A program made the position numbers and the translations under genes. The notes under the pieces were generated by a model. The model saw only the letters and a list, made by a program, of their open reading frames with translations, was not told the origin of the DNA and made no database searches. 64,000 nucleotides of DNA, taken from positions 1 through 64,000 of the forward strand of contig NZ_CP133160.1 in assembly GCF_030913365.1 (NCBI RefSeq), written 5' to 3'. The stretch is from Stenotrophomonas sp. 24(2023) (GTDB lineage: Bacteria > Pseudomonadota > Gammaproteobacteria > Xanthomonadales > Xanthomonadaceae). Shown here in pieces: positions 1,621 to 36,664 of the stretch; position 1 is the stretch's first letter, and the number at the start of each line of letters is the position of its first letter.

Positions 1621-1667
1621 CGCCTTGGGTGCAGGGCCTTAGCCCTGCTCACCCATGCACCACCCTT

Positions 1668-2085
1668 CAAATCAACCCGGCCGACGGTCCGGCTCGAACT
1701 GCGCCATGGCCTCCGGCTCGATCAGTCTCAGAGGGTCATTCGCATCAAACGCACATTCGTCCTCAACCCACTGCGGCCACATTGGCATACGGCAGGATTT
1801 CAAGACCAGCCAGCGGCACAGTACGAGAGGCAACAGCAGTGGCATCAACGCGATTCGGGCACCCAGCATGGCAGGCCCGAGACTGGCAACCACGAACAGA
1901 TAGCAGTTGCGCCAGGACGGCTTCACCGAGATGTTCATCTGCCGGCCGTCGATGCTGTCGACCACAGCCTCCGGCCCACTCTCCATGTAGCGCCTGACGA
2001 ACTCCCAGATCCCACTGACTTTCTGCTCGTCATCTGAGTAGTGCCCGACAGCGAAGGTGCGCTTGACCACCCGATCTTCGACCGT
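1668..2085. repeat. Long direct repeat, copy 1
   Basis: About 420 bases match 4690-5108 in the same orientation at roughly 90 percent by eye. The differences are scattered single bases, and the reading frame is kept across the block. The match ends abruptly at both sides. This is an ancient duplication of part of a DUF6708-like gene. Confidence 0.8.
1672..2085 (-). pseudogene. 5'-truncated DUF6708-like remnant, fused to IS DNA
   Basis: This holds the C-terminal about 135 residues of a DUF6708-like protein: VEDRVVKRTFAVGHY, the signature GIWEFVRRYMESGPEAV, a membrane segment (CYLFVVASLGPAML and following), MWPQWVEDEC and the tail FEPDRRPG. A second copy at 4699-5169 matches at close to 90 percent of bases by eye and continues upstream into more family sequence. 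Here the similarity stops abruptly at about 2085, where an IS3-type transposase start takes over. The gene lost its N-terminal half and has no start of its own; a GTG at 2070 is only nominal. Probably non-functional. Confidence 0.7.
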
Positions 2086-2204
2086 AGGTAATCTGCCCCT
2101 CGGTGAAACGGGACTTCTTCATCACCTGATTCCTCGTGATCCACGGGGGCCCATGCGAGCTAAGTCCCTACTCTACGCTGGCGCGGTTCTTCGGGGGTGG
2201 GTCA
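2086..2204 (-). mobile_element. Remnant of an IS3-family element: left end plus start of orfA
   Basis: The minus strand encodes MKKSRFTEGQITY starting at about 2124. This is the usual N-terminus of IS3-family OrfA transposases (MKKSRFTEEQI and variants). About 80 bases upstream, on the minus strand, the sequence begins TGACCCACCCCCGAAGAACC, which looks like a TGA-type IS3 terminus ending near 2204. After the Tyr codon the frame runs straight into DUF6708 sequence. Only the first 120 or so bases of the element survive, and no other end was found nearby. The family assignment rests on the N-terminal motif. Confidence 0.6.
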
Positions 2205-2473
2205 GAGTCCCTTCCCCCAGGGCAACCAGATCAACTGCGATGCAGCGAGTGCTGTCTTTCGGCACCAACGGAAGTATTGATCCGGACCCGCTTAGATCAC
2301 CCCAACTGGGCCAGCCATAAGCTGGCCAAGGAACCGGATAAGGCGCACCGCAGAAAGCGAATATCAGTGATCCATTTTCTTCACTACGCCAGAACCAAAT
2401 TGAGACGGAATTAACCACCACATCCAATCAACAGCACCCTCACCAGGGAGAGCATCCAGAACATCAATAAATT
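2205..2473. other. Degenerate spacer between the IS remnant and a DUF6708 gene
   Basis: There is no intact gene. Just past the stop of the gene at 2474, the minus strand has a protein-like run (about 2472-2370: IDVLDALPGEGAVDWMWWL and on) that ends in a stop and has no start. It may be another remnant of immunity or effector DNA. Confidence 0.35.
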
Positions 2474-3565
2474 CTAGAACTTCGAATCGGAAAACCAGGG
2501 GGGCACACCGAGAACCGCGAACATCATGAGCACAATAACTGTTGAAATGAAGCCCAGCAGCGCCCAGCGTCGATTCAGTGAACGCAACTTTCCGGAATAG
2601 GCCTGTCGCTCTTCCTCCGTAGGGATCCTGACTCGATAGTAATTCTTCGAAGCCGCAGACATCATCTCAGCACGAATCTCTTCTGGCCATTCAGGCCTGG
2701 GAGCCACACGAGATATCCAAAGCCCAGCCTTTTCAAACCAATACATAAAGGCCCCGACAATTACCACGTACACGAAAGCAAATGCACCCGACTTGACTCG
2801 GTGATGATCGTCGACAAGATCCCCATACAGCTGGCGGTCCATCAACGCCAAATCCGCCTTTGCGTTCTCAGGTGATGGCAACGGATCCACTTCCGGCAGG
2901 CTGTCTGACTCCCCATCCATGTAGATTCTGATGAACTCCCAGATCATTTCAGGCGCACGAATATCTCGATGAGGCTGAGCCAATGGGACATATACATTAA
3001 TTCGCCTATCGGAACCATCACAATCCACGATCGCCAGCACATACCCGGTAGCGGCGCCCGCCAGACTGTAGCTTCTGGAAACCATGGACACAGGCTGAAC
3101 TTCATCGTAGCTCGTAATCACCCACCCAACCTTAGGCCCAAGCCATGAATAGAAGTGCCGATGCCTCCGGCTAAGCACGACGGGCGGCGCCATAGGCCTT
3201 AACACTGAGGCAACCGACCACGCAAAGAAACCGCATGCGATCAGGAGCAGAACTCCATATGCGGCCGCCGCACTGGGCCAGAAATTCGGACTCGATAGAA
3301 GATTCCCCACCACAACATCAGCGAGAATCATGCTCACTCCAGCACACCCGATTACGAGTCCGAACACGAAAGAAAAGCCTCTGCGAGAGGCAGGAACACC
3401 CTGAGCAAAAACCAAAAATGATTCATTTATTGACTGAATCGCCTTGGCAGACGCCGGCTCAAGTTCTGGAGGCATCTTTCCAGATCTAAGCAATCTTCCC
3501 CAGCTTCCACTTCTATCGGGAAGCTTGCTCATACCAAACAGAGCATCACGGGCACTTTTATTCAT
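2474..3565 (-). CDS. DUF6708-family membrane protein (candidate orphan T6SS immunity protein)
   Basis: An intact 363-residue protein. A soluble N-terminus (1-60) is followed by two membrane helices (about 62-90 and 97-120). A middle domain carries the family signature MIWEFIRIYMDGESDSLP (about 207-224). A third helix lies near 258-278, then APRPEWPEEI, a charged linker and a last helix ending VPPWFSDSKF. The ATG lies five bases after the stop of the effector-tail remnant at 3571-4017. The intact effector and DUF6708 gene at 6888 and 5820-6881 have the same spacing. I infer that this is the immunity gene of a lost effector, kept as an orphan. GC is clearly lower than in the T6SS core genes. 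Immunity function is not proven by sequence. Confidence 0.75.
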   Translation of the reverse strand: MNKSARDALFGMSKLPDRSGSWGRLLRSGKMPPELEPASAKAIQSINESFLVFAQGVPASRRGFSFVFGLVIGCAGVSMILADVVVGNLLSSPNFWPSAAAAYGVLLLIACGFFAWSVASVLRPMAPPVVLSRRHRHFYSWLGPKVGWVITSYDEVQPVSMVSRSYSLAGAATGYVLAIVDCDGSDRRINVYVPLAQPHRDIRAPEMIWEFIRIYMDGESDSLPEVDPLPSPENAKADLALMDRQLYGDLVDDHHRVKSGAFAFVYVVIVGAFMYWFEKAGLWISRVAPRPEWPEEIRAEMMSAASKNYYRVRIPTEEERQAYSGKLRSLNRRWALLGFISTVIVLMMFAVLGVPPWFSDSKF

Positions 3566-3570
3566 CAGAA

Positions 3571-4017
3571 CTACTTCTTCTTGGCTGTAGGGAATTCGAG
3601 ATTTGTCGATAAGGAAGGAATGGCATTTCTATACGGGAAATAGACGATCCTCATTCCGAAGCCGACTACTTCCGTATAGCGCTCAGCCTTGTCGTCGAAC
3701 CATCGCCCAATTGTGTTCATCATTCCTACTGTCATACCACGACCAGATCCGAGTCTCCCCTTGACTACAGCAGCACCACTTTCATCCACTTCAACATCAG
3801 GCTGACCCTCACCCCCGGTGAGCCTGATGCTTCTCTTGAAGTTCCGCGCACGGGGCTCGCCATCCAGTAAATCAAAAGATGAAACCACTACCTTCTTGCC
3901 ATCTTCAGTAAAACCAAAGAACGTAACCGACAGCGCAGCACCCTTCGTATATCGAGGAAGAGCAATTTCGTAGACTCCAAGTGTCGCATTGCCGTTGGCA
4001 ATTTTGGCACATGGCAC
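3571..4017 (-). pseudogene. C-terminal tail of a lost effector gene
   Basis: A 148-codon frame with only a GTG start, which lies inside the 29-bp junction repeat. The 5' part has therefore been cut off. The product is beta-rich and soluble (for example YEIALPRYTKGAALSV and MRIVYFPYRNAIPSLS) with a lysine-rich end. It has no signal peptide or membrane helix. It sits five bases upstream of an intact DUF6708 gene, as the VasX-like effector sits six bases upstream of its own. The intact effector also ends in a beta-rich domain containing WRIVYVTDELKK. I infer the C-terminal tip of a deleted T6SS effector. The homology between the two tails is weak by eye. Confidence 0.5.
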
Positions 4018-4037
4018 TCAAAGGACTGCAGTAGCCA
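4009..4037 (+). repeat. 29-bp direct repeat, copy B (recombination junction)
   Basis: An exact copy of 875-903, the end of the first gene including its stop codon. It abuts the truncated effector tail on one side and AT-richer filler on the other, so it marks the breakpoint that removed the 5' part of that gene. Confidence 0.85.
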
Positions 4038-4698
4038 CCCCTTGGCCGTTCTTAAGGTCATCCGCTACTGCCATGAAGCTCCGTGCCAAGCTTATTAATT
4101 AATCAAATGCACCCAACAGGGCAACAGCCGACTCCAGATGCCTGGCAAGCAGTTTTCGGGCGACTTGCCGCTCATACATTTCCGCGACATCAACAAACGA
4201 AAATACAACTCCAAACCCTGCCTAGAAGAAGCTTAAGATGGCGTCCCTGCGTTCTTTCGCCGTTCCGGAATCCGTCTTCTTCCACGCTCTGGCAATCTCC
4301 ATCGCCTGGATGATGCCTACCCCTGCACTCATCATCGTACGCATATCGGCAATCACCGTCAGGGGCGCCGAGGCCAGACTCATCAGGCCACTGGACCCCA
4401 TGTTGATGGGTTCAGCCGCAACCGCAATTCCCCTGTGGGGCCTTGTTGACCATGCCGCCAAATCCCGCAACGAGTGGAAATGCGGATAGCGACGAGATGG
4501 ATGTTAACTAAGATCGAAGCATCGGATTCCTCAATCGACTGAATACCAGGCAGCTTCATCGTCGCCCTTGGCGATGTATGCTCGTGCTTAGACAGCGCCG
4601 CGCGAGTCAGCCGGCGAACTGGCGCCTCGACACCGTTGATGTGAGCCTCATGCCGCCCTGCTTGCCCAACCCTGCTCCCCAGCGCGCCATCCTTCAAA
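4038..4698. other. Degenerate region, no intact gene
   Basis: There is no complete gene here. One minus-strand frame (4222-4470) could be a remnant and is listed separately. Around 4488-4530 a stretch encoding IHLVA on the minus strand resembles 5612-5665 (IGIHLVASH), so parts of this filler are themselves related to the DNA left of the 5820 gene. Confidence 0.4.
4222..4470 (-). pseudogene. Possible C-terminal remnant of unknown origin
   Basis: An 82-codon frame with a protein-like composition: AWSTRPHRGIAVAAEPINMG, a hydrophobic segment, then IEIARAWKK-type helical sequence and DAILSFF. There is no ribosome binding site. The opposite strand is also open (4238-4489), so the coding strand is uncertain. 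It lies among effector and immunity debris. I do not recognise the family. Confidence 0.25.
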
Positions 4699-5108
4699 TT
4701 AAGCCGGTCGACGGTCCGGCTCGAACTGCGCCATGACCTCCGGCTCGATCAATCTCAGAGGGTCATTTGCGTCGATCGCACATTCGTCCTCAACCCACTG
4801 CGGCCACATCGGCATACGGCAGGATTTCAAGACCAGCCAGCGGCACAGTACGAGAGGCAACAGCGGAGGCATCAACGCGAATCGGGCATCCAGCATGGCA
4901 GGCCCGAGACTGGCAACCACGAACAGATAGCAGTTGTGCCAGGACGGCTTTACCGAGAGATTCATCTGCCGGTCGTCGATGCTGTCGACCACGGCCTCCG
5001 GCCCATTCGCCATGTAGCGCCTGACGAACTCCCAGATTCCCCTGATTTTATGCTCATCATCGAAGTAGTGCCCGATGGCAAAGGTGCGCTTGACCACCCG
5101 ATCTTCGA
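4690..5108. repeat. Long direct repeat, copy 2
   Basis: Matches 1668-2085 at roughly 90 percent by eye in the same orientation. Unlike copy 1, its upstream neighbour sequence continues as DUF6708 coding DNA (see the pseudogene at 4699-5218). Confidence 0.8.
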
Positions 5109-5218
5109 CGACGCTGCAGCGCAGGTCGCGCAGGAACTCCTGGGTGGTTCCCCGACCGATGTAGAACACCGCGTCATCCCAGGGTACCCGGACTGCCCCT
5201 TCCTTTCCTCCGGGTCGT
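4699..5218 (-). pseudogene. DUF6708-like remnant, longer copy of 1672-2085
   Basis: The minus strand encodes GAVRVPWDDAVFYIGRG, EFLRDLRCSVVEDRVVKRTF, the signature GIWEFVRRYMANGPEAV, a membrane segment, MWPQWVEDEC and a C-terminal FEPDRRPA. The frame is closed upstream by a TAA near 5218, with no plausible start before it; the first GTG is at 5169. An RVPWD-type segment usually lies in the middle of the family, so about 150 N-terminal residues are missing. A truncated paralogue, probably not expressed as a functional protein. Confidence 0.65.
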
Positions 5219-27073: not shown

Positions 27074-30046
27074 ATGGACATCCCAAGCTCCGCGCTGCTC
27101 GCTTCACTCGCCTCGCTGTCCCACCGCGAACGGCTGATCCAGCTCATCGGCCCGCATGACGGGCTGGTGGTCGAACGCTTTGAAGGCGAGGAAACGGTCT
27201 GCGGCGACAACCGCCTGCAGATCGACTGCCTGGCCACCGACGCGTTCCTGGAACTGGACCCGTGGCTGGAGAAGCCGCTGACCCTGCAGCTGCGCCAGGC
27301 CGATGGCGGCCTGCGCCAGTGGCACGGCCTGTGCACCGAAGCGGCCCAGCTGGGCAGCGACGGCGGCCTGGCCCGCTACCGGCTCACCCTGGAACCGTGG
27401 ACCGCCCTGCTGCGCCTGCGCCGCAATGCGGTGATCTTCCAGGACAGCGACACCCGCGCCATCTGCGAGCAGATCTTCGCCGACTACCCGCAGGCGAGCT
27501 TCCGCTTCGATGTGCAGGCCACCCTGCCCGCCCGCGCCATCACCACCCAGTACCGCGAGACCGACTGGGACTTCGTCACCCGCCTGCTGGCCGAGGCCGG
27601 CCTGGCCTGGCGCATCGAGCAGGCCCAGGGTGATGAGGCCGGCCATACGCTGGTGGTGTTCGAGCCCGGCGCCGAGCAGCCCGACAGCGGCACGCTGCGC
27701 TTCCACCGCGCCGACATGGCCGAGGCCAGCGATGGCATCACCGCCTTTGCCGAGCGCCAGCAGCTGGTGCCCAACGCCAGCACCGTGGCCAGCTGGCACA
27801 GCGAGCAGGTCAGCGCCATTGCCGGCCAGTCCAGCGCCGATGCCGGCACCCTGCCGGCGCTGGAGGTCTACGTGCAGCCGCGCGCCGGGCGCTTTGCCCA
27901 GTCCGGCTGGGCCGATGCCGAAGCACAGGCCCGCCTGGATGCCCTGCGCGTGGGCCAGGTGCTGTACAGCGGCAGCGGCAGCGAGCGCCGGCTGGCCGCC
28001 GGCAGCACCTTTGCCCTGTCCCAGCACCCGCAGCACCAGGGCCAGCGCTTCCAGCTGCTGGCCGTGCAGCACGTGGCGGTGAACAACCTGGACCAGGGCA
28101 TCGCCGAACTGCTGGGCAGCGCCGAGGCCGAGCGCGGCAGCTACCGCAACCGTTTCCTGGCCACCGGCGTGGACGTGCCGGTGCGCGCCCTGCCGCAGGA
28201 CCGGCCCACCCTGCACGGCCCGCAGACCGCACGCGTGGTGGGCGTGGCCGATGCCGCCCTCAGCCCCAGCCGCGAACACCAGGTGCGCGTGCAGTTCGGC
28301 TGGCAGCGCGGTGCCAGCCCCAACCCCGGCGGGCTGACCGACACCGGCAGCGCCCGTTCCGGCCATGCCCCGGGCGACCACACCAGTGGCAGCTGGGTAC
28401 CCGTGGCCGAATGGGTGGCCGGCCCGAACTGGGGCAGCGCCTTCCTGCCGCGCATCGGCAGCGAGGTGCTGGTGGAGTTCCTGCACGGGGACATCGACCA
28501 GCCGCGCATCACCGGCCAGCTGTACAACGGCGAGGTCGCCCCGCCTTTCGGCGGTGGCATCGACGAGAAGGCGCGGCATCCCGGCGTGCTCAGCGGCCTG
28601 CACACCCGATCCCATGACGGCAGCGGCACCCAGCAGTGGGTGATCGACGACACCCCCGGCCAGCTGCGCACCCGCCTGCACAGCTCGCTGGCCGACAGCC
28701 GGCTGGAACTGGGCTACCTGATCGCCCACCAGGACACCGCCCGCGGCAGCCTGCGCGGGGAAGGCTTCGAGCTGGCCACCCAGGGCTGGGGCAACGTGCA
28801 CGCCGCCGAGGGCCTGCTGCTGTCGGCCAGCCTGCAGGCCGGTGCCGGCTCGACGGTGATGGACAACGCCAGCGTGGTGGCCCAGCTCAAGGGCGCCGAG
28901 CGCAGCCTGGAGCAGATGCAGCAGACGCTGGGCCAGCAGCAGGTACCGGGCCTGGCCGAATTCCAGCGCACCCGGCAGCTGCGCGAGCAGATCGACCCGC
29001 AGGCGCAGGGCCGCTACAGCGGCCAGGTGAATGGCCAGAGCGCGATGAAGCCGGGCAGCGACGGCCGCAGCGCCGGTGACCAGCCGGTAGAGCGGCTGGG
29101 CACGCCGCTGCTGCTGGCCGAGGCCCCGCACCACATCGCCTGGACCACCCCGGCCAGCGCGGTGGCCTATGCCGGGCAGAACCTGCAGATGACGGTGCAG
29201 CAGGACCTGCACGTGAGCGCCGGCGAGACGCTGGCGACGGTGTCCGGCGAACAGGTTTCGCTGTTCACGCAGAGCGGCCCGCTGCGGGTGATCGCGGCCA
29301 ATGGCCCGGTCAGTCTGCAGGCCCACGATGGCGAGCTGGAACTGCTGAGCGAGCAGGCGCTGACCATCACCGCCACCGACGAGCGCATCGACGTGCTGGC
29401 GCAGAGCAAGGTGGTGCTGCAGGCCGGCAGCAGCGCGATCACCCTGGACGGCGGCAACATCACCTTCAGCTGCCCGGGCGAGTTCAAGGTCAAGGCTGGC
29501 GAGCATCCGTTCATGGGGGGGGAGAGCTCGCAACCGCTGCTGGCGGCACTCCCCCTCGGACTGACGCCACGCGCACTTGATCTGAAGTACGCGTACAAGG
29601 ATCTGAAGCCGGTAGTCGGCGCGCCATTCCGGGTGATGTTCGACAACGGCACCAGCGCCGAGGGAAAGCTGGACGATAAGGGTGAGGCCCGCATCGAGAA
29701 TCCGCCGGGCCCTGGCAAGGTCTTCTTTGGCTATGACCAGCGTGAAGCCTTCGCCTACCCGCAACGCCCGGCGAACCCGATCTTTGGCTTCGTACCCACC
29801 TCCCCGGAGGATGCCCGGCAGGCACTTGAGCGTTACGCCAAAGCCGAGAACGAGTACATGGAAGACAACTACTTCCCGGATGAGGTCGCTGCGATCTATT
29901 CAGGCGAAGAGACCTACGACGATCTGGTCAATGCCTACGACTATTTCGACGAGCTTGAAGAGACGCATGCCGGCGACGGCACGCCCGGAGAGCATCGCGA
30001 AATTGTTCTGGATGAGAATGGCAAGGATGCCGGGGAAAGCGCATGA
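27074..30046 (+). CDS. vgrG: T6SS spike protein VgrG with C-terminal effector-docking extension (second copy)
   Basis: A 990-residue VgrG starting at ATG 27074. It has the gp27-like core (ICEQIFADYPQASFRF, ITTQYRETDWDFVTRLLAEAG), the gp5 OB-fold (WVAGPNWGSAFLPRIGSEVLVEFLHGDIDQPRITG) and a DUF2345 region ending near residue 812 (GEFKVKAGEHPFM). About 175 extra residues follow. They include a beta-sandwich-like segment (GAPFRVMFDNGTSAEGKLDD) and an acidic helical tail rich in Glu/Tyr. Such extensions dock specific effectors. The stop overlaps the effector start by ATGA. GC drops at the junction, which also carries a run of eight G. Confidence 0.95.
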   Translation: MDIPSSALLASLASLSHRERLIQLIGPHDGLVVERFEGEETVCGDNRLQIDCLATDAFLELDPWLEKPLTLQLRQADGGLRQWHGLCTEAAQLGSDGGLARYRLTLEPWTALLRLRRNAVIFQDSDTRAICEQIFADYPQASFRFDVQATLPARAITTQYRETDWDFVTRLLAEAGLAWRIEQAQGDEAGHTLVVFEPGAEQPDSGTLRFHRADMAEASDGITAFAERQQLVPNASTVASWHSEQVSAIAGQSSADAGTLPALEVYVQPRAGRFAQSGWADAEAQARLDALRVGQVLYSGSGSERRLAAGSTFALSQHPQHQGQRFQLLAVQHVAVNNLDQGIAELLGSAEAERGSYRNRFLATGVDVPVRALPQDRPTLHGPQTARVVGVADAALSPSREHQVRVQFGWQRGASPNPGGLTDTGSARSGHAPGDHTSGSWVPVAEWVAGPNWGSAFLPRIGSEVLVEFLHGDIDQPRITGQLYNGEVAPPFGGGIDEKARHPGVLSGLHTRSHDGSGTQQWVIDDTPGQLRTRLHSSLADSRLELGYLIAHQDTARGSLRGEGFELATQGWGNVHAAEGLLLSASLQAGAGSTVMDNASVVAQLKGAERSLEQMQQTLGQQQVPGLAEFQRTRQLREQIDPQAQGRYSGQVNGQSAMKPGSDGRSAGDQPVERLGTPLLLAEAPHHIAWTTPASAVAYAGQNLQMTVQQDLHVSAGETLATVSGEQVSLFTQSGPLRVIAANGPVSLQAHDGELELLSEQALTITATDERIDVLAQSKVVLQAGSSAITLDGGNITFSCPGEFKVKAGEHPFMGGESSQPLLAALPLGLTPRALDLKYAYKDLKPVVGAPFRVMFDNGTSAEGKLDDKGEARIENPPGPGKVFFGYDQREAFAYPQRPANPIFGFVPTSPEDARQALERYAKAENEYMEDNYFPDEVAAIYSGEETYDDLVNAYDYFDELEETHAGDGTPGEHREIVLDENGKDAGESA
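29515..29522 (+). repeat. G8 homopolymer at the VgrG core/extension boundary
   Basis: Eight consecutive G bases encode the Met-Gly-Gly-Glu junction in the second vgrG. It is the kind of tract prone to slippage. A shift here would remove the docking extension and uncouple the effector start. Confidence 0.7.
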
Positions 30047-31467
30047 GCAGCAATGCCGCACTGAAGAAGGCTGAAGACGATACGCTGGCGGAAATTCTTA
30101 CCTGGGTCCAGGAAGTTGTCGAGGGGCGCGGCGATTCGGCCGCCCAGATGGTGGTCTCCGTCGTGCTGGGGTGCATCCCGTATGTAGGACAGGCGATTGA
30201 TGTCTACAACATCCTCCGCAGCCTCTACACGCTGACCCGTGCGCCTGCCGCCGTGGATGGCTGGATTTCGCTGGTGCTTTCGCTGATCGCGATCGTGCCG
30301 GTATTTGGGGACGCCCTGAAGAATGTCTTCATGATGCTGCGCAATGGCAAGAAGATGGGGCGCATCCTCGACAGCCTGCCGAACAAGGTCCGCGGAGACA
30401 TCGAGAAATGGTTCCGCCACCTCAACTGGGCGCAGTACGCGCGCGAACTGACGAAATCAGTCGACGACATCCTGGCCGGCATGGTCGACGTGCTGGAATA
30501 CCGGGTCACCAACTGGGTACTGGGTCGCCAGGGCGTACAGAAGCTGGTCAAGCAGCTTCAGGAACTGAAGAGCCTGGCAAGCCGAAAGATCGACGAGGCC
30601 ATGGGCAATCTTCGCCAGGCGCACCAGCGTGCGCTGCATGACCCGTTGCCGACCACCAGCGGCAGCAGCAGCATCGGAACATCCACAGCCAAGCTGCCCA
30701 CACCCGGCTCCCAGACCGGAGGCACCGTCCGCCATACATCGGCTGGCACCGCAACGCCATCGAGTGGAACCGCCAACGCCACGAAACGCCAGAGCGACCG
30801 CTCGACGTTGAGCCGCAGCCAACTGGGGGCATCCGGCGAGCACATCGCCGATTACTACTTCGTCAAGCGTCAGCGCAACCGCAGCAAAGTGAGCTTCAAC
30901 GGGCACCTGTTCGAGATGCGCCAGCCTGGTCATCAGGGTATCGACCATGTGTGGCATGGTGCCCGACTGCCGCATGGCTATCGCATCAGTGACACCAAGG
31001 GAACGGGGGGCCCGTTCCACAAGCTGGAGACTGCCAAGGCGGTCTACCAGGCCCTGGAGTATGGAATTGATGCGTACCTGGGAGAGCAGGACGAGAAGAA
31101 GGCCAAGGGGGCGGTTAATTCAAAGGTCACCGCAGATGGCAAGCAGATGAGCCACCGATGGATTGCGAAGAAGCTTGCAACCGCAAAGCTTCTGCCAGCG
31201 CATGCCAGCACGCTGCTCCCGAAGGTAAGCGCATGGCGCCGAAATGATTTCAAACTTGGCGCCTCTACTGATATTAGTGAGGATGGCGATGTTACACGCA
31301 CCCTCGTTAGATGCCCATATGATCGCAGCATCGTCACGGTGGTCGGACCAAACCACAACACGCACGAAAAATCCAAAGGAAATTCGTCAGGAAGATGCGC
31401 CAAAGCAGCAACCAGCCATCAAATAGCCACTGAATTCATCCTACCCAACTCCATACTTCCGAAGTGA
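30043..31467 (+). CDS. PoNe-type PD-(D/E)XK DNase T6SS effector
   Basis: A 474-residue protein. The N-terminal 110 residues hold hydrophobic helices (VVSVVLGCIPYVGQAIDVYN, SLVLSLIAIVPVFGDALKNV), a pre-toxin type region. A helical linker (110-200) and a Ser/Thr/Pro/Gly-rich spacer (200-258) follow. The C-terminal toxin begins LGASGEHIADYYF (E266), then GIDHVWHG (D301) and RISDTKGTGG (D317-x-K319), the PD-(D/E)XK core. KQMSHRWIAKKL (about 367-378) is a segment typical of PoNe nucleases. The ATG overlaps the vgrG stop, so VgrG delivery is likely. The last 70 residues are AT-richer. Four PoNi-type immunity genes follow directly. Assignment to PoNe is from motifs plus partner genes. Confidence 0.8.
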   Translation: MSSNAALKKAEDDTLAEILTWVQEVVEGRGDSAAQMVVSVVLGCIPYVGQAIDVYNILRSLYTLTRAPAAVDGWISLVLSLIAIVPVFGDALKNVFMMLRNGKKMGRILDSLPNKVRGDIEKWFRHLNWAQYARELTKSVDDILAGMVDVLEYRVTNWVLGRQGVQKLVKQLQELKSLASRKIDEAMGNLRQAHQRALHDPLPTTSGSSSIGTSTAKLPTPGSQTGGTVRHTSAGTATPSSGTANATKRQSDRSTLSRSQLGASGEHIADYYFVKRQRNRSKVSFNGHLFEMRQPGHQGIDHVWHGARLPHGYRISDTKGTGGPFHKLETAKAVYQALEYGIDAYLGEQDEKKAKGAVNSKVTADGKQMSHRWIAKKLATAKLLPAHASTLLPKVSAWRRNDFKLGASTDISEDGDVTRTLVRCPYDRSIVTVVGPNHNTHEKSKGNSSGRCAKAATSHQIATEFILPNSILPK

Positions 31468-31475
31468 AATAATTC

Positions 31476-32528
31476 ATGCAATTTAGTAATCCTGACTGGA
31501 AGTCCTGGCTTGCCTGGAAGGTACAACAAACGGCATTTGATGGCCGCCGCGAACCATATCAGCGCTTTGATACTTATTCCGCACAGTTCAAAGACTCCCT
31601 CGGCGGCATCGTCATGGTCACAACTGACCTACCTAAGCATGTTGCGAAGGCACGCAAATCTGGCCTAATGATGTCCACACAACAGCGCCTATGGGACGCG
31701 CTTAACTTAATGAGCTTGCAGTACTCGGCAGGCGCAGCCATCAATCAACTTACGGCGATCTGGCCATACACTCTGCAATGGGCAGAGGAATACTCGCGCT
31801 TTGACAAGGAGTATGACGACTCTGCAGAGAACACCTCCGGCGATCGGATTCCACACGTTACGCTGAGAGACGAAGAATACTGGATAGTTGCACTACGGAT
31901 GGTCTGCTTTGGAATTCTTACAGGCAATGCCAACGATATGCCCCGTGTCATGGCCATACTCGACTACGTCAACGCCGAATTGAACATACATGACGGACTG
32001 CTGGAGCGACTGGTCGCACCGTGGGCTCCGGGTAGACCCATCCCGGACACCGCAACCCGACACCTCCCCTACCGCAAGCTGTTCAAAGTTTTCGATGCCA
32101 CGCCCGAAAAGCGCCCGGCCCTGATGGCTACCTATCTTGACGAGTGGTACCACGCCAGCCGGCGCGAACCTTATATTGACCAGCATGGCGAGGGTGACAT
32201 TGCCTTCTATGGCTACTGGTCGTGGGAAGCCGCAGCGACCACCATCGTGCTCGGCATCGATGATGCGAGCTATCGCGACATGGCGTTCTATCCCAGGGAT
32301 CTTGCGGACTACGCCCGCCAGGTCGCGTCCGGCGCGACCAGCGACGAACGTGTTGGCCGGGTAGCAGCGAACGAGCCCTGCCCGCGCAATGGCTGGTGGT
32401 ACACACCTGCACAAGGCAGTCGACGCTACTTCCGCGAAGGCGACATCTTCCCCTCCATCGAGAACAGCGACTGGGGCGACACCTTCTGGATATGGGCCGC
32501 AGACCAGACGCCGCCGGCGTTGGGTTGA
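31476..32528 (+). CDS. PoNi-type immunity protein, copy 1 (DUF1910/DUF1911)
   Basis: A 350-residue soluble protein, eight bases after the PoNe stop. The N-terminal half is DUF1910-like (MQFSNPDWKSW, LWDALNLMSLQYSAGA). The C-terminal half is DUF1911-like (EYWIVALRMVCFGILTGN, YIDQHGEGDIAFYGYWSWEAAA, GIDDASYRDMAFYPRDLADYAR). PoNi proteins bind and neutralise PoNe DNases in the cytoplasm. This copy has an extra C-terminal tail of about 40 residues (YFREGDIFPSIENSDWGDTFWIWAAD). It is closest to the effector and probably the cognate immunity. GC is low for this genome. From about residue 120 on it is nearly identical to copies 2 and 3, while the first third differs. Confidence 0.85.
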   Translation: MQFSNPDWKSWLAWKVQQTAFDGRREPYQRFDTYSAQFKDSLGGIVMVTTDLPKHVAKARKSGLMMSTQQRLWDALNLMSLQYSAGAAINQLTAIWPYTLQWAEEYSRFDKEYDDSAENTSGDRIPHVTLRDEEYWIVALRMVCFGILTGNANDMPRVMAILDYVNAELNIHDGLLERLVAPWAPGRPIPDTATRHLPYRKLFKVFDATPEKRPALMATYLDEWYHASRREPYIDQHGEGDIAFYGYWSWEAAATTIVLGIDDASYRDMAFYPRDLADYARQVASGATSDERVGRVAANEPCPRNGWWYTPAQGSRRYFREGDIFPSIENSDWGDTFWIWAADQTPPALG

Positions 32529-32772
32529 CTCTCCGCCACCAGCACTGAGCCCTTCGGCAAGGCGGAAATTGCCGCGAGCTGCATGGAGAATCATTGGCAG
32601 ATCCTCATGTTGAGGGCTTCGGCGGCAAGCCAAAAGCACAATTCCGCGGCGACGCCGGCTTCTTCGTCGCCACATGTGCACCTCCGTGTGGGAATGGTGA
32701 CCGAACAACCAAAGCTGCGGCATCACAGCAGGTCACCGTTGCATTCATGCTTCCTTGTGCTCCGCTTCTGAT
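32529..32772 (+). other. Spacer between immunity copies 1 and 2
   Basis: About 240 bases. One open frame (ATG 32594, ending at the TGA that overlaps ATG 32773) gives MADPHVEGFGGKPKAQFRG and then a hydrophobic cysteine-containing stretch. It has no clear ribosome binding site and matches nothing I know. It may be a remnant of a gene replaced when the immunity unit was duplicated. Confidence 0.3.
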
Positions 32773-32784
32773 ATGAGATCTTGC

Positions 32785-33726
32785 ATGCAATCCGTGAGCC
32801 CCGATTGGAAGGCCTGGATGGCCCGAAAGATCAGCGAAGAAGGCTTCGAGCAACGCAGAGAACCTTATCAGCGTTACGGGACCTATCTGGCTCAATTCAA
32901 GAGCACAATCAACAGGATCGCGATGGTGACTGTCGACCTCCCAAAGCACCTTGCCAAGGCCACGAATGGGGGATTGATGACCTCGACGCGTCGGCGCCTT
33001 TGGGATTCGCTTGATTGGCTCTGCGTGCAATACTCTGCTGGCGCACCCGCAGCGGAAATTGCAGACGTCTGGCCTTACGTTATTGAATGGGCAGAAGAGT
33101 ACGCGAGGTTTGACAAAGCGTATGACGACTCTGCAGAAAACACCTCCGGCGATCGGATTCCACACGTCACGCTGAGAGACGAAGAATACTGGATGGTTGC
33201 ACTGCGGATGGTCTGCTTTGGAATTCTTACAGGCAATGCCAACGACATGCCGCGTGTCATGGCCATGCTCGACTACGTCAACGCCGAATTGGACATCCAT
33301 GACGGACTGCTGGAACGGCTGGTCGCACCGTGGGCTCCGGGCAGACCCATCCCGGACACCGCAACCCGACACCTCCCCTACCGCAAGCTGTTCAAAGTCT
33401 TCGATGCCACGCCCGACAAGCGCCCAACCCTGATGGCTACCTATCTTGACGAGTGGTACCACGCCAGCCGGCGCGAACCTTATATTGATCAGCATGGCGA
33501 GGGTGATATTGCCTTCTATGGCTACTGGTCGTGGGAAGCCGCCGCGACCACCATCGTGCTCGGTATCGATGATGCGAGCTATCGTGATATGGCGTTCTAT
33601 CCCAAGGATCTTGTGGACTATGCTCGCCAGATCGCGTCCGGCGCGCCCAGCGACGAACGTATTGGCCGCGTAGCAGCGAACGAGCCCAGCCCCCGCGGCG
33701 GCTGGTGGTACACGCCCGCACTATGA
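32785..33726 (+). CDS. PoNi-type immunity protein, copy 2
   Basis: A 313-residue DUF1910/DUF1911 protein starting MQSVSPDWKAWMARKISEEG, aligned to the starts of copies 1 and 4; an ATG four codons earlier (32773) is also possible. The C-terminal half matches copy 1 at about 95 percent of bases (compare 31820-32330 with 33130-33640). The N-terminal 110 residues differ at many positions, including the AGAPAAEIADVWPYVIEWAEEYARF segment. It ends at WWYTPAL, without the extra tail of copy 1. The stop overlaps an ATG of copy 3. It probably gives immunity to a related but different PoNe toxin. Confidence 0.8.
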   Translation: MQSVSPDWKAWMARKISEEGFEQRREPYQRYGTYLAQFKSTINRIAMVTVDLPKHLAKATNGGLMTSTRRRLWDSLDWLCVQYSAGAPAAEIADVWPYVIEWAEEYARFDKAYDDSAENTSGDRIPHVTLRDEEYWMVALRMVCFGILTGNANDMPRVMAMLDYVNAELDIHDGLLERLVAPWAPGRPIPDTATRHLPYRKLFKVFDATPDKRPTLMATYLDEWYHASRREPYIDQHGEGDIAFYGYWSWEAAATTIVLGIDDASYRDMAFYPKDLVDYARQIASGAPSDERIGRVAANEPSPRGGWWYTPAL

Positions 33727-33734
33727 GATCTCGT

Positions 33735-34679
33735 ATGCAACCTGTGAGCCCCGATTGGAAGGCCTGGATGGCCCGAAAGATCAGCGAAGAAGGTTTCAAG
33801 AAACGCAGAGAACCCTACCAGCGCTACGAGACCTATCTAGCTCAGTTCAAGAGCACCGTTGGCAGGATCGCGATGATAACTGTGGATCTGCCAAAGCACC
33901 TTGCCAAGGCCACCAGTGGGGGATTGATGACCTCCACGCGTCGGCGTCTTTGGGACACACTGGACTTCATGAGCCTGCAGTACTCAGCAGGTGCACCGCC
34001 GGCCGAGATTGGTGATATCTGGCCGTATGTTCTGCGATGGGCGGAGGAGTACGGCACTTTTGACAAGGCCTATGATGACTCGCCTGAAAACACCTCCGGC
34101 GATCGGATTCCTCATGCGCCGCTCGTGAGCGAAAGCTATTGGATCGTCGCGCTTCGCTTAGTCTGCTTTGGAATTCTTACAGGCAATACCAACGACCTGC
34201 CACGCGTCATGTCGTTCCTGGACTACGTCAACGCCGAATTGGACATCCATGACGGACTGCTGGAACGACTGGTCGCACCATGGGCCCCGGGTAGACCCAT
34301 CCCCGACACCGCAACCCGGCACCTTCCCTACCGCAAGCTGTTCAAAGTCTTCGATGCCCCACTCGACAAGCGCCCGGCCCTGATGGCCACCTATCTTGAC
34401 GAGTGGTACCACGCCAGCCGGCGCGAACCCTACATTGACCAGCATGGCGAGAGTGACATCGCCTTCTATGGCTACTGGTCGTGGGAAGCTGCCGCGACCA
34501 CCATCGTGCTCGGCATCGATGATGCGAGCTATCGCGATATGGCGTTCTACCCCAAGGATCTTGCGGATTACGCCCGCCAGATCGCGCCAGGCGCAACCAG
34601 CGAAGGCAGCGAAGGCAGCGACCTGGGTGACACGTTCCGGATATGGGCCGCGGACAAGACACCACCAATAATGGAATGA
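33735..34679 (+). CDS. PoNi-type immunity protein, copy 3
   Basis: A 314-residue paralogue. The start MQPVSPDWKAWMARKISEEG is nearly identical to copy 2; an ATG at 33723 overlapping the stop of copy 2 is an alternative start. From SGDRIPHAPLVSESYWIVALR it follows copy 4 for a short stretch, then returns to the shared C-terminal half. After DYARQIAPGATSE the GWWYTP region is missing. Instead two GAAGGCAGC units lead straight into DLGDTFRIWAADKTPPIME, the tail type of copy 1. That is an internal deletion relative to copy 1. The mosaic pattern points to recombination among copies. Confidence 0.8.
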   Translation: MQPVSPDWKAWMARKISEEGFKKRREPYQRYETYLAQFKSTVGRIAMITVDLPKHLAKATSGGLMTSTRRRLWDTLDFMSLQYSAGAPPAEIGDIWPYVLRWAEEYGTFDKAYDDSPENTSGDRIPHAPLVSESYWIVALRLVCFGILTGNTNDLPRVMSFLDYVNAELDIHDGLLERLVAPWAPGRPIPDTATRHLPYRKLFKVFDAPLDKRPALMATYLDEWYHASRREPYIDQHGESDIAFYGYWSWEAAATTIVLGIDDASYRDMAFYPKDLADYARQIAPGATSEGSEGSDLGDTFRIWAADKTPPIME

Positions 34680-34708
34680 ACAGGCGCCCCGCCTCACCAT
34701 TCCCATGC

Positions 34709-34740
34709 GGCATCCGGCATCCGGCATCCGGCATCCGGCA
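34709..34740 (+). repeat. Tandem repeat of GGCATCC (about 4.5 units)
   Basis: GGCATCC occurs four times in a row plus a partial unit, 30 bases after the stop of immunity copy 3. It is in non-coding DNA and could mark slippage or a breakpoint of the array. Confidence 0.85.
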
Positions 34741-34814
34741 ACGGATAGACCACCAGACCCAGACGAACGTTCGACGGCGAGGTAGACATCGACAGCAGAC
34801 CGTTCGACGGTGAC

Positions 34815-35003
34815 ATGAAGATGGGCGATATCCCGGCCGCCAGCAACATGACCTTTGAGGTTCACTGCAGCAGTGGCATTGCCACATGCACAACGAATCG
34901 GGTTGATGGAACGTCTCGTGGCTACTCGATCTACTTCAAGGTCGACAAAAAGCGGCACAACAGTCTGCTGTACACCGTGAAAGTAAGCCACGCCCTTGAG
35001 TGA
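34815..35003 (+). CDS. Small hypothetical protein or 3' remnant
   Basis: A 62-residue frame (MKMGDIPAASNMTFEVHCSS...VDKKRHNSLLYTVKVSHALE) with two cysteines and a beta-rich look. The frame stays open upstream to a stop at 34746 with protein-like sequence (RTFDGEVDIDSRPFDGD) but no start. The ATG has no ribosome binding site. It may be the C-terminal end of a truncated gene. No family is recognised. Confidence 0.35.
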   Translation: MKMGDIPAASNMTFEVHCSSGIATCTTNRVDGTSRGYSIYFKVDKKRHNSLLYTVKVSHALE

Positions 35004-35134
35004 CCTCGTCCGGACGGCTCACCAGCTTGGCAATCCCACTCGATCCCACCAAGATCACACCGCCCTGACTGGCCCGCCATCGAACATCCACCGCTCCGCG
35101 CAGTTGCCAGCGCCATTGCCTTTACGGATATACC

Positions 35135-35698
35135 ATGATGCTGTCACCTCGCAGGTTTGTAGTTCTGGCCACCATCTCCTGGCTTTCGGCAGCCGCGTGG
35201 GCTTCAACACCGAAGGACAGCGCATTCAACGCGCACCCGCCTCATGGCATTGCGGTCTCGGCGGATAGCCGGATTGCACGCAACTATCCGCAAACCGAGT
35301 GCCTCGATTTCCAGCGGGAGCGAAAGCACATTGGATTTCTCTGCACGTCTGCCAGCAAGCTGTTCCTAGCCGATTTCGGAATTACGACCGTAGAGGGAAC
35401 CCAGGATTCTCCAGAGCACGCCCAGGTAGCGACAGGCGTGTCGTCCTATGAAATGGCACCCATCCCCCTTCATGGACACAGGCTGTTCACCGCTGAAGTC
35501 GATTGCGATGAGGGGGACGAACTGCAGTATCGTGCAACCTCCACGTGCCATGTGGCCTTCATGCCACTGACCAGCACGCACTTCTACTACAGCAGTTTCG
35601 TCCTCAGAAACCACGCCACGTCCACATCGCGCATTGATGTACAGGCCGTCCTGGCCATCTGGGAAAGCCTGACCATTCCGCCGGGTAAGCAGGACTGA
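35135..35698 (+). CDS. Exported protein of unknown function inside the immunity array
   Basis: A 187-residue protein. The N-terminus MMLSPRRFVVLATISWLSAAAWAS is a signal peptide with cleavage expected near ASA or WAS. The mature part has four cysteines (TECLDF, FLCTS, VDCDEGDE, STCHVAF), possibly two disulfides, and a beta-rich character (HFYYSSFVLRNHATSTSRIDV). It lies between immunity copies 3 and 4. A periplasmic immunity protein to another toxin is one possibility, but nothing in the sequence shows it. I do not recognise the family. Confidence 0.65.
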   Translation: MMLSPRRFVVLATISWLSAAAWASTPKDSAFNAHPPHGIAVSADSRIARNYPQTECLDFQRERKHIGFLCTSASKLFLADFGITTVEGTQDSPEHAQVATGVSSYEMAPIPLHGHRLFTAEVDCDEGDELQYRATSTCHVAFMPLTSTHFYYSSFVLRNHATSTSRIDVQAVLAIWESLTIPPGKQD

Positions 35699-35770
35699 TC
35701 GCTGATGCACCAAAGCTCCAACATTGCGTCGAGTTTCTCAACCCCGCTTTCCATTGAAACAGGAACCGGC

Positions 35771-36664
35771 ATGCCGCTTCATAATCCCGACTGGAAGGAA
35801 TGGATGGCACGCAAAGTCAGCGCAGACGACTTTGCGCTGCGAAGAGAGCCGCAGCAGCGCTATGCAACGTATCTCGCCCAGTTCCAGGATACGGTGAGCG
35901 GGATTGCCATGGTCACCGTCGACCTGCCCAAGCACCTTTCCAGAGCATCCCGTGGCGGATTGATGACCTCCACGCGCCGGCGCTTATGGGACACCCTTGA
36001 TCTGATGAGCCTGCAGTACTCGGCAGGTGCGCCGATCGGCCAACTCACCGGGATCTGGCCATACACCCTGGCGTGGGCAGAGGAGTACGGCGCCTTTGAC
36101 AAAGCCTATGATGATTCGCCGGAAAACACCTCCGGCGATCGCGTTCCGCATGCACCGTTGGTAACTGAAAGCTATTGGATCGTCGCCCTGCGGATGGTGT
36201 GCTTCGGGATCCTGACGGGCAACGCCAATGACATGCCCCGTGTCATGGCATTCCTCGACTATGTCAACGCCGAACTGGGCATCCATGACGGACTGCTGGA
36301 GCGCCTGGTGGCACCGTGGGCACCTGGCCGCCCCCAGCCTGACACCACCACGCGCAACCTGCCCTACCGCAGGCTGCTGAAGGTCTTCGAGGCCAGCCCT
36401 GACAGGCGTCCGGCATTGATGGCGACCTATCTTCAGCACTGGTACGAGGCCAGCCGGCGCGAGCCCTATGTCGACCAGCATGGCGAGGGCGACATTATCT
36501 TCTACGGCTACTGGTCATGGGAGGCCGCCGCGACCACCATCGTGCTCGGCATCGATGATGCCAGCTATCGCGACATGGCCTTCTACCCGAAGGATCTTGT
36601 GGACTACGCACGCAGGGGCGCACCAATGAAGACACCCCACACGCATTCCGATGGGGCATCCTGA
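35771..36664 (+). CDS. PoNi-type immunity protein, copy 4
   Basis: A 297-residue DUF1910/DUF1911 protein. The ATG at 35771 follows AGGAA and reads MPLHNPDWKEWMARKV; an upstream in-frame ATG at 35705 would add 22 unlikely residues. It has YSAGAPIGQLTGIWPYTLAWAEEYGAF, YVDQHGEGDIIFYGYWSWEAAA and YPKDLVDYARRGAP at the end. It is more GC-rich and more diverged than copies 1-3, so it is probably the oldest or a separately acquired member. It is separated from copy 3 by about 1.1 kb holding two unknown frames. Confidence 0.8.
   Translation: MPLHNPDWKEWMARKVSADDFALRREPQQRYATYLAQFQDTVSGIAMVTVDLPKHLSRASRGGLMTSTRRRLWDTLDLMSLQYSAGAPIGQLTGIWPYTLAWAEEYGAFDKAYDDSPENTSGDRVPHAPLVTESYWIVALRMVCFGILTGNANDMPRVMAFLDYVNAELGIHDGLLERLVAPWAPGRPQPDTTTRNLPYRRLLKVFEASPDRRPALMATYLQHWYEASRREPYVDQHGEGDIIFYGYWSWEAAATTIVLGIDDASYRDMAFYPKDLVDYARRGAPMKTPHTHSDGAS

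What the first reader, a model, noticed from the sequence alone, without database searches (positions are those of the whole stretch)
31476..36664. Four-gene array of PoNi-type immunity paralogues behind one PoNe-type DNase, with a conserved C-half and variable N-half
Seen: four DUF1910/DUF1911-like genes. From about residue 120 on, copies 1 and 2 are about 95 percent identical in DNA by eye. The first 110 residues differ heavily, and copy 3 mixes tracts of copies 2 and 4 with the tail of copy 1. Known: PoNi proteins neutralise PoNe DNases. Inferred: the N-terminal half sets toxin specificity while the C-half is homogenised by gene conversion, so the array acts as a bank of immunities against rival PoNe variants.
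Basis: partly seen in the sequence, partly recalled or inferred. Interest (0 to 1): 0.75.

Follow-up and report, generated by a model that had tools for sequence, protein, structure and literature searches.

The report
Mosaic T6SS immunity-gene array (PoNi)
Behind one antibacterial injected toxin sit four related antidote genes whose front halves differ while three of the four back halves are kept alike by DNA exchange, which looks like a way for bacteria to collect and reshuffle protection against rival toxins.

Summary
In 90-base windows copies 1 and 2 are 56-63% identical up to codon 105 and 91-98% from codon 106; silent sites show the same step (27/48 mismatches, then 20/158), so this is recombination, not selection alone. 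Copy 3 is copy 2 carrying a copy-4 tract (codons 74-138). Copy 4 stands outside the homogenised set. A fast-N/slow-C gradient is family-wide (114 of 114 usable homologues), so conversion explains only the excess. The step recurs in two of four other same-genus arrays tested (codons 135-139). New: against a related genome, the coldest silent stretch runs from toxin codon 348 to immunity codon 100, so the toxin's end and the first immunity's N-half are shared as one block. A toxin C-terminal stub precedes copy 2. The toxin is PoNe-like but misses three motif positions. N-half specificity and the "bank" role have indirect support; neutralisation is untested. Closest precedents: EsaG/TipC arrays (T7SS) and V. 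cholerae T6SS immunity arrays. New variant of a known kind.

The parts
27074..30046 (+). VgrG spike gene (open frame from 26840; start inferred by eye), overlaps the toxin gene by 4 bases
   Evidence: Phage_GPD, T6SS_Vgr, DUF2345, TIGR03361 (scanned from 26912)
30043..31467 (+). PoNe-like toxin, 474 aa: helical part (about 1-200), linker, predicted PD-(D/E)xK nuclease part (about 255-474) with E266, D301, D317-x-K319
   Evidence: no Pfam/NCBIfam hit
31084..31775 (+). block shared with L036: toxin codon 348 to copy-1 codon 100, coldest silent-site stretch
   Evidence: 11/204 mismatches inside, 177/685 outside, LLR 24.4 against a maximum of 12.8 in 100 shuffles
31476..32528 (+). copy 1 (350 aa), adjacent immunity gene with full C-tail
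32696..32776 (+). toxin C-terminal stub, about 26 codons, its stop overlapping the first ATG of copy 2 (ATGA)
   Evidence: profile score 6.2, best of 2279 other stop-ended peptides in the window -11.8; not significant by whole-domain HMM
32773..33726 (+). copy 2 (313 aa from ATG 32785, or 317 from ATG 32773), tail cut short; stop overlaps the first ATG of copy 3
33723..34679 (+). copy 3 (314 aa from ATG 33735), copy-2 backbone with copy-4 tract at codons 74-138 and copy 1/2-like C-half
34735..34894 (+). gene fragment, 91% identical to part of a longer frame in L036 (frame seen by eye)
35135..35698 (+). 187-aa gene with a signal-peptide-like start (by eye), function unknown, kept in L036 at 88%
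35705..36664 (+). copy 4 (297 aa from ATG 35771), no C-tail, outside the homogenised set

Best explanation
This is the variable end of a T6SS vgrG operon: a VgrG, one PoNe-like nuclease toxin with its adjacent PoNi immunity gene (copy 1), then three further PoNi genes left by earlier toxin-immunity modules whose toxins were displaced; one displaced toxin left a C-terminal stub before copy 2. Shown: the copies are mosaics with recurring boundaries near codons 73 and 100-140; the part from about codon 140 on is homogenised among copies 1-3; the toxin's last 127 codons and copy 1's first 100 codons are shared with another genome as one block. Inferred: the N-terminal helices, with the variable toxin segment 351-425, carry pairing specificity; the alike C-half is a common scaffold and a stretch of homology through which copies are swapped, fused or lost, and possibly through which a new toxin end plus matching N-half is spliced in; the orphans stay because they protect against relatives that still carry the older toxins.
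For: Silent-site steps: copies 1-2 after codon 105, 1-3 after 141. dS: copies 1-2 saturated in N, 0.19 in C, while copy 1 against its L036 counterpart x1 is 0.094 in N, 0.38 in C; copies 2-3, 2-4, 3-4 and 4-x2 have dN/dS about 0.11-0.25 where dS is measurable. N tree pairs copy 1 with x1 and rejects copies 1+2 (AU p 6e-6); C tree joins 1+2 (support 88/86, not starred). Tracts: copy 3 (74-138) and L036 x2 (72-135), p 5e-5 each. Same step in L041 (after codon 135: 41/88, then 9/191) and L071 (after 139: 32/65, then 14/126), p 0.002 each. Shared toxin-N-half block. L036 lacks copies 2 and 3; its x1 has a copy-1 front, a copy-2-like tract (codons 118-178), a tail shortened much like that of copy 3, and copy 3's 3' flank. 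Stub before copy 2. In L071 a toxin remnant (residues 405-472, 59%) lies between two PoNi genes. Toxin-N-half covariation: partial r 0.68, p 0.0005, against 0.27 for the C-half (toxin residues 425-474, 13 loci).
Against: Two of five same-genus arrays tested are not homogenised: L036 x1/x2 (p 0.58) and L072 (34/101 mismatches still after its changepoint, N-half of one copy missing). Copy 4 is not homogenised. In L071 the N-half proteins are alike (58/63) although silent sites differ. The toxin core 255-330 also tracks the C-half (partial r 0.36, p 0.005), and in the ten-locus subset the variable toxin segment tracks the immunity middle (0.56) and tail (0.45) better than the N-half (0.29). In the solved relative a C-half loop matters for binding. 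No toxin paired with a copy-2, -3 or -4 type N-half was found. Silent-only run tests on the four copies alone were not significant. dN/dS between recombining copies is only a rough guide.
Confidence: 0.66

Rival explanations
1. No exchange: the C-half is conserved only because the DUF1911 fold is under strong purifying selection, and the N-half drifts or diversifies.
For: N is less conserved than C in 114 of 114 usable homologues, so a selection gradient is real.
Against: Silent sites show the step; copies 1-4 keep about half their silent sites different up to codon 218 (64/135); copy 1 is closer to copy 2 than to x1 in C (dS 0.19 against 0.38) and the reverse in N; tract tests.
Confidence: 0.06
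2. Leftovers: copies 2-4 are remnants of displaced modules with no present use, and their alikeness is a passive by-product of recombination between repeats.
For: Tails are shortened in copies 2 and 3 and lost in copy 4; toxin stub before copy 2; a PoNi pseudogene in L071.
Against: All four frames are open; dN/dS 0.12-0.14 (copies 2-3), 0.12 in C (2-4) and 0.22-0.25 (4-x2); copy 4 and the 187-aa gene have counterparts in L036.
Confidence: 0.2
3. Redundant or cross-protecting set: all four copies neutralise the same local toxin (dosage, or broad binding through the common C-half).
For: Cross-protection between non-cognate immunity proteins is known for another PD-(D/E)XK effector, RdnE (PMC12483513, passages); the C-half loop needed for binding in VP14460 is 16/19 invariant among the copies (loop placed by alignment and helix order).
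Against: N-half proteins of copies 1 and 2 are 55% identical while the C-half is 95%; Vibrio and Bacillus PoNi did not cross-protect (PMC6688995, passages).
Confidence: 0.13
4. Direction reversed: whole genes were duplicated recently and divergent N-halves were then imported from outside donors, anchored in the C-half, rather than C-halves being converted.
For: The toxin-end/copy-1-N block is nearly identical to that of another genome, which could be import of that kind for copy 1.
Against: In the N tree copies 2-3 and 4-x2 are sisters and copies 1-4, x1 and x2 form one starred clade among 16 rows, so most of the N-half variety seen is old within this lineage. The two directions are not exclusive.
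Confidence: 0.25

Closest known systems
PoNe/PoNi pair VP14465-VP14460 (V12_14465/V12_14460) of Vibrio parahaemolyticus (PMC6688995, passages; PMC13377157, abstract and sections 6, 7, 8, 10)
   Same: DUF1911 immunity gene directly behind a toxin with a GE...GID...(D/E)-x-K core; residues 207-341 of copy 1 align with the solved chain 9vy2, E 5e-12, which I take for VP14460 because D209, R215 and T222 fall at the right places (entry code not seen in the parts read)
   Different: One immunity gene described in the parts read; N-halves not alignable by sequence; our toxin lacks the motif K, has W for Y and D for E
EsaG and TipC immunity-gene strings of T7SS (PMC9484751, abstract and discussion read)
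   Same: Tandem non-identical immunity genes exchanging segments through conserved blocks; copy number changes by recombination; toxin fragment inside an immunity cluster (tspA/tsaI)
   Different: Firmicutes, T7SS; for EsaG three blocks of about 55-100 bases rather than one homogenised half-gene; a shared toxin-end-plus-N-half block is not described in the parts read
Orphan immunity arrays of V. cholerae T6SS clusters (PMC5361080, passages incl. part of the abstract)
   Same: New effector-immunity modules displace older effectors and leave their immunity genes as an array
   Different: The model there is of arrays of different immunity types; here they are paralogues of one subfamily that recombine with one another
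Poly-immunity operons of S. rhizophila CFBP13503 (PMC13340143, passages): tsi3 with 12 homologues, tdi5 with four extra, Tse4 with DUF1911 Tsi4a and Tsi4b; immunity arrays in thirteen Ralstonia aux types (PMC11481896, passages)
   Same: T6SS vgrG operons with extra homologous immunity genes; the S. rhizophila case is the same genus and one set is of DUF1911 type
   Different: 'recombination' occurs 0 times in the S. rhizophila text; exchange between copies is not described in the passages seen of either paper
PA2201 (PDB 2fef), DUF1911-type protein of P. aeruginosa
   Different: 20% identity over the aligned residues; its genetic context was not looked at

Membership tests
PoNi immunity family | DUF1911 / PoNi_C domain above curated cut-off | tested here: met
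   78.7-79.2 bits against 25 in all four
PoNi immunity family | DUF1910 / PoNi_N domain (often present, not obligatory) | tested here: not met
   19.3 and 16.8 bits against 22.4 in copies 1 and 2, no match in 3 and 4
PoNi immunity family | Fold of a solved DUF1911 protein | tested here: met
   [not shown]
PoNi immunity family | Encoded directly behind a PoNe or PoNe-like toxin | tested here: met
   copy 1 starts 8 bases after the toxin stop; copy 2 only behind a stub; not met by copies 3 and 4
PoNi immunity family | Binds and neutralises the toxin | not testable with these tools
   needs co-expression
PoNe toxin family | Motif Kx3GExnGIDx2YxnYx3ExK (PMC6688995) | tested here: not met
   79 sequences: E266, GID, Y313 and K319 79/79, G265 74/79, but K in 2/79, W not Y 79/79, D not E 79/79; core kept, three positions differ
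PoNe toxin family | PD-(D/E)xK residues at the expected places (Glu in a helix, Asp before a strand, D-x-K in the next strand; placing recalled) | tested here: met
   E266 in H258-276, D301 before E302-305, D317-x-K319 in E313-320
PoNe toxin family | Fold match of the nuclease domain to a solved relative | tested here: inconclusive
   rows span residues 13-203 only; one search has no match at E 0.001
PoNe toxin family | DNase activity | not testable with these tools
   needs an assay
T6SS orphan immunity array | Several immunity genes behind one effector in a vgrG operon | tested here: met
T6SS orphan immunity array | Remnants of displaced effectors | tested here: met
   in the window; L071 residues 405-472 at 59%
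T6SS orphan immunity array | Orphans match the immunity partner of a toxin in another strain | tested here: inconclusive
   None found for copies 2-4. P0121 resembles copy 2 (N-half 90%) but its neighbours are unknown. Outside the window, L074 is a PoNi without this toxin whose counterpart L073 has one
EsaG-type recombining immunity string | Recombination between paralogues at conserved blocks, with copy-number change | tested here: met
   L036 has two copies where the window has four

The most novel reading that the evidence does not exclude
The homogenised C-half of PoNi genes acts as a built-in downstream homology arm: strains trade one cassette made of the toxin's specificity-bearing end plus the matching N-half of the immunity gene, spliced onto a resident immunity C-half. 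Every swap then yields a chimeric but working antidote, and the displaced partner survives further down as an orphan from which middle segments (codons about 73-137) can be drawn again.
Probability: 0.35. Interest if true: 0.7.

Novelty: new variant of a known kind. Interest (0 to 1): 0.52.

Why it matters
How a bacterium changes a toxin without killing itself is a standing question for polymorphic toxin systems. If one recombining unit carries the toxin end and only the pairing half of the antidote, with the other half supplied locally, the change is safe in one step and the old antidote can be kept. The natural chimeras found here (copy 3, L036 x1 and x2) make the idea testable without designing anything, and the boundary near codons 100-140 is a concrete prediction for other PoNi arrays.

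Tried and rejected
Toxin remnant in the copy 1-2 gap: whole-domain HMM 2.4 bits, below the best shuffles (8.0 among 1000); best tblastn E 0.001 among 120 queries, with an equally low E at an unrelated place. The profile test was clear, but I had already noticed the resemblance in that frame by eye (note), so the frame was not chosen blind; what carries the claim is the margin over 2279 other stop-ended peptides and the place directly at the copy-2 start. No other such peptide in the window scored above -11.8 (own toxin apart).

A first reading that the toxin's last bin is only 77% identical to L036 was an arithmetic artefact (72 bases divided by 90); finer bins give 97-98%.

Longest-run tests on the four copies: copies 1-2 (p 0.002) and 2-3 (p 0.0003) significant on all sites, 3-4 marginal (0.049), none of six pairs on silent sites alone; changepoint and triplet tests were used as well. 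Changepoints for the other pairs: 2-3 p 0.038, 3-4 p 0.048, 2-4 p 0.054, 1-4 p 0.12. Of the 17 triplet tests, 14 have p below 0.05 and 3 do not; five were repeated with 20000 shuffles and silent sites.

Covariation used 13 loci: the window, 11 of the 17 loci, and L073. Left out: L043 and L050 (toxin in two pieces), L049 (partial), L047, L048, L052 (further Acinetobacter). In 'same contig' was inferred from equal contig lengths: 9 pairs outside the window, one of them the L041 array; all 9 above the mean C-identity of other pairs at their N-identity, 6 of 9 with under 5% of other pairs as high. Six other genomes of the genus sample have two or more matches; four were tested for homogenisation, the distant arrays L076 and L077 were not, nor the fragments in L075.
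Full report
SETTING. The window starts a 4.52-Mb genome held as one contig. The genus is Stenotrophomonas: G013, listed as same genus, has a contig of the same length as Stenotrophomonas sp. SY1. The window holds the genome's only match to the tail-sheath family VipB, other T6SS genes (ClpV-type ATPase, TssF, TssG, TssK-type VasE, DotU) and two VgrG genes. The second VgrG ends at 30046 and overlaps by four bases a 474-aa toxin gene (30043-31467), followed after 8 bases by copy 1. GC at third positions is 0.81-0.88 in most of the surrounding T6SS genes, 0.72 in the toxin and 0.66-0.74 in the immunity genes, which fits acquired DNA.

EXCHANGE, NOT ONLY SELECTION. In 114 of 114 usable homologues the N-half (1-105) is less like copy 1 than the C-half (106-285; means 0.49 and 0.68), so part of the pattern is family-wide. 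Silent sites separate the causes. Copies 1-2 change after codon 105 from 27/48 to 20/158 mismatches, copies 1-3 after codon 141 from 38/77 to 21/123 (p 0.002, the floor); copies 1-4 show no significant change (p 0.12) and 64/135 silent sites differ up to codon 218. dS for copies 1-2 is saturated in N and 0.19 in C; for copy 1 against its counterpart x1 in L036 it is 0.094 in N and 0.38 in C. So in the C-half copy 1 is nearer to its neighbour than to its counterpart in the other genome, and in the N-half the reverse: the mark of concerted evolution. Trees agree: the N tree has starred pairs copy 1 + x1, 2 + 3, 4 + x2 and rejects 1 + 2 (AU p 6e-6); the C tree (codons 142-285) joins 1 + 2 (88/86, not starred) and keeps 4 + x2 apart (starred).

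SEGMENT SHUFFLING. Copy 3 reads as copy 2 with a copy-4 tract at codons 74-138; x2 of L036 reads as copy 4 with a copy-2 tract at codons 72-135; both p 5e-5 with 20000 shuffles, silent-only p 0.010 and 0.0011 (the silent-only tract of x2 is 104-135). Nearly the same boundaries in two genomes point to a middle segment that is exchanged as a unit. In the model it runs from the middle of helix 61-85 to the start of helix 134-148.

OTHER ARRAYS. In the genus sample 11 of 91 genomes have a match, this one counted, and six others have two or more. Of the four tested, two show the same silent-site step: L041 after codon 135 (41/88, then 9/191) and L071 after codon 139 (32/65, then 14/126), p 0.002 each. 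Two do not: L072 (38/65, then 34/101 at codon 213, p 0.046, N-half of one copy missing) and L036 x1/x2 (p 0.58). The distant arrays L076 and L077 were not tested. Among nine protein pairs outside the window that seem to share a contig (one is L041), all nine have more C-half identity than the mean of other pairs with the same N-half identity.

THE TOXIN END AND THE N-HALF TRAVEL TOGETHER. L036 (MAG contig WNDS01000007.1, titled Stenotrophomonas maltophilia) carries the same toxin (95.6% protein identity); a 3.3-kb stretch 3 kb downstream of the array is 86% identical in DNA. Over 889 silent third positions from VgrG to copy 1, the coldest stretch is toxin codon 348 to copy-1 codon 100: 11/204 mismatches against 177/685 outside, LLR 24.4, maximum in 100 shuffles 12.8. 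Its 3' edge agrees with the copy 1-x1 changepoint (codon 101; 4/88, then 37/163) and with the copy 1-2 changepoint (codon 105). Its 5' edge is where the toxin family becomes variable: residues 351-425 are 46-57% identical among the first 20 toxins of alignment A3, residues 301-350 79-80%. Over 13 loci, with delivery-domain distance held constant, the N-half follows the toxin's residues 425-474 (partial r 0.68, p 0.0005) better than the C-half does (0.27, p 0.047). For the core 255-330 the contrast is small (0.45 and 0.36), for segment 331-424 too (0.39 and 0.26), and for that segment in the ten closest loci it is not seen (0.29 and 0.30).

DISPLACED TOXINS. The 26 codons before copy 2 score 6.2 on a profile of the toxin's last 24 residues; the best of 2279 other stop-ended peptides in the window scores -11.8 (the frame had been noticed by eye before). 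The stub's stop and the first ATG of copy 2 overlap as ATGA, as do the copy-2 stop and first copy-3 ATG (read). In L071 a longer remnant (residues 405-472, 59%) lies between a full PoNi gene and a PoNi pseudogene; upstream, by eye, stand a VgrG-like frame of 165 aa, a 447-aa frame that is no PoNe-like toxin, and two related genes of 280 and 291 aa. L036 lacks copies 2 and 3; its x1 has the copy-1 front, a copy-2-like tract at codons 118-178, a tail shortened much as in copy 3, and copy 3's 3' flank, as fusion through the C-half would leave. This is the displacement model of V. cholerae arrays (PMC5361080, passages) combined with the recombination model of EsaG and TipC strings (PMC9484751, abstract and discussion).

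WHAT THE TOXIN IS. 120 database proteins match its residues 220-474, itself counted, among them named ones of Xanthomonas, Luteimonas, Pseudomonas, Cupriavidus, Azoarcus and Acinetobacter; it occurs in 6 of 398 genomes of the order, this one counted. E266, G299-I300-D301 and D317-x-K319 are invariant in 79 of 79 and lie as I recall them in PD-(D/E)xK enzymes. Against the PoNe motif (PMC6688995, passages) K, Y and E are mostly L/I/T, W and D. PoNe-like toxins with PoNi-like immunity are mentioned in that paper. DNase activity is inferred.

FUNCTION. In the solved relative VP14460-VP14465 the binding pocket is formed by helices 2, 3 and 5 and the loop between helices 9 and 10; the residues named are Y28, K45, R52, W55, D107, S108, D209, R215 and T222 (PMC13377157, sections 8 and 10). 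Six of nine are N-terminal, but the loop double mutant gave no measurable binding. The same loop in copy 1 (231-249) is 16/19 invariant among the copies, so it can hardly tell toxins apart here; the helices can (31-55: 13/25, 61-85: 14/25, 86-115: 16/30 invariant). The N-halves of VP14460 and copy 1 could not be aligned by sequence, so for them this mapping is by helix order only. Where dS is measurable the orphans show dN/dS of about 0.11-0.25, so they have been kept as proteins. That they protect against rivals is inferred.

VERDICT. The parts are known kinds; I did not see the combination, in a T6SS and at half-gene scale, in the listings of searches.

Noticed in passing
window 1643-5169: A second, apparently decayed immunity array: three DUF6708 stretches (1750-2058, 2657-3208, 4777-5088, minus strand) with a 300-base duplication at 92% (1643 and 4670). 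DUF6708 is the family named for Tsi3a in S. rhizophila.
   Followed up: partly
window 35135-35698: 187-aa protein with a signal-peptide-like start between copies 3 and 4, kept at 88% in L036; 8 database hits including itself, one named S. maltophilia. Possibly immunity to a periplasmic toxin.
   Followed up: partly
L074 8901-9977 and L073: G439 carries a full PoNi gene with no match to this toxin in the 16-kb stretch and no T6SS gene recognised by eye nearby; its N-half is close to that of the toxin-linked PoNi of G420 (dN 0.021, dS 0.141). A possible acquired orphan antidote.
   Followed up: partly
L071 5190-12798: PoNe-like module apparently displaced: VgrG-like frame, a 447-aa frame, a pair of related 280/291-aa genes (all by eye), then PoNi, toxin remnant, PoNi pseudogene.
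   Followed up: partly
window 32334-32525 and loci L064, L065, L066: The C-tail of copy 1 (residues about 287-350) alone matches other open frames of 387-430 codons at 56-70% in three genomes; copies 2-4, L036 x1 and the first L041 copy have lost or shortened it. It may be a detachable module.
   Followed up: no
[not shown]
   Followed up: no
P0148 and L072: A DUF1911 protein labelled Bacillus subtilis sits on an 8096-base contig, the length of contig C80 of G451, a genome of this window's genus; the label is probably a contamination.
   Followed up: no
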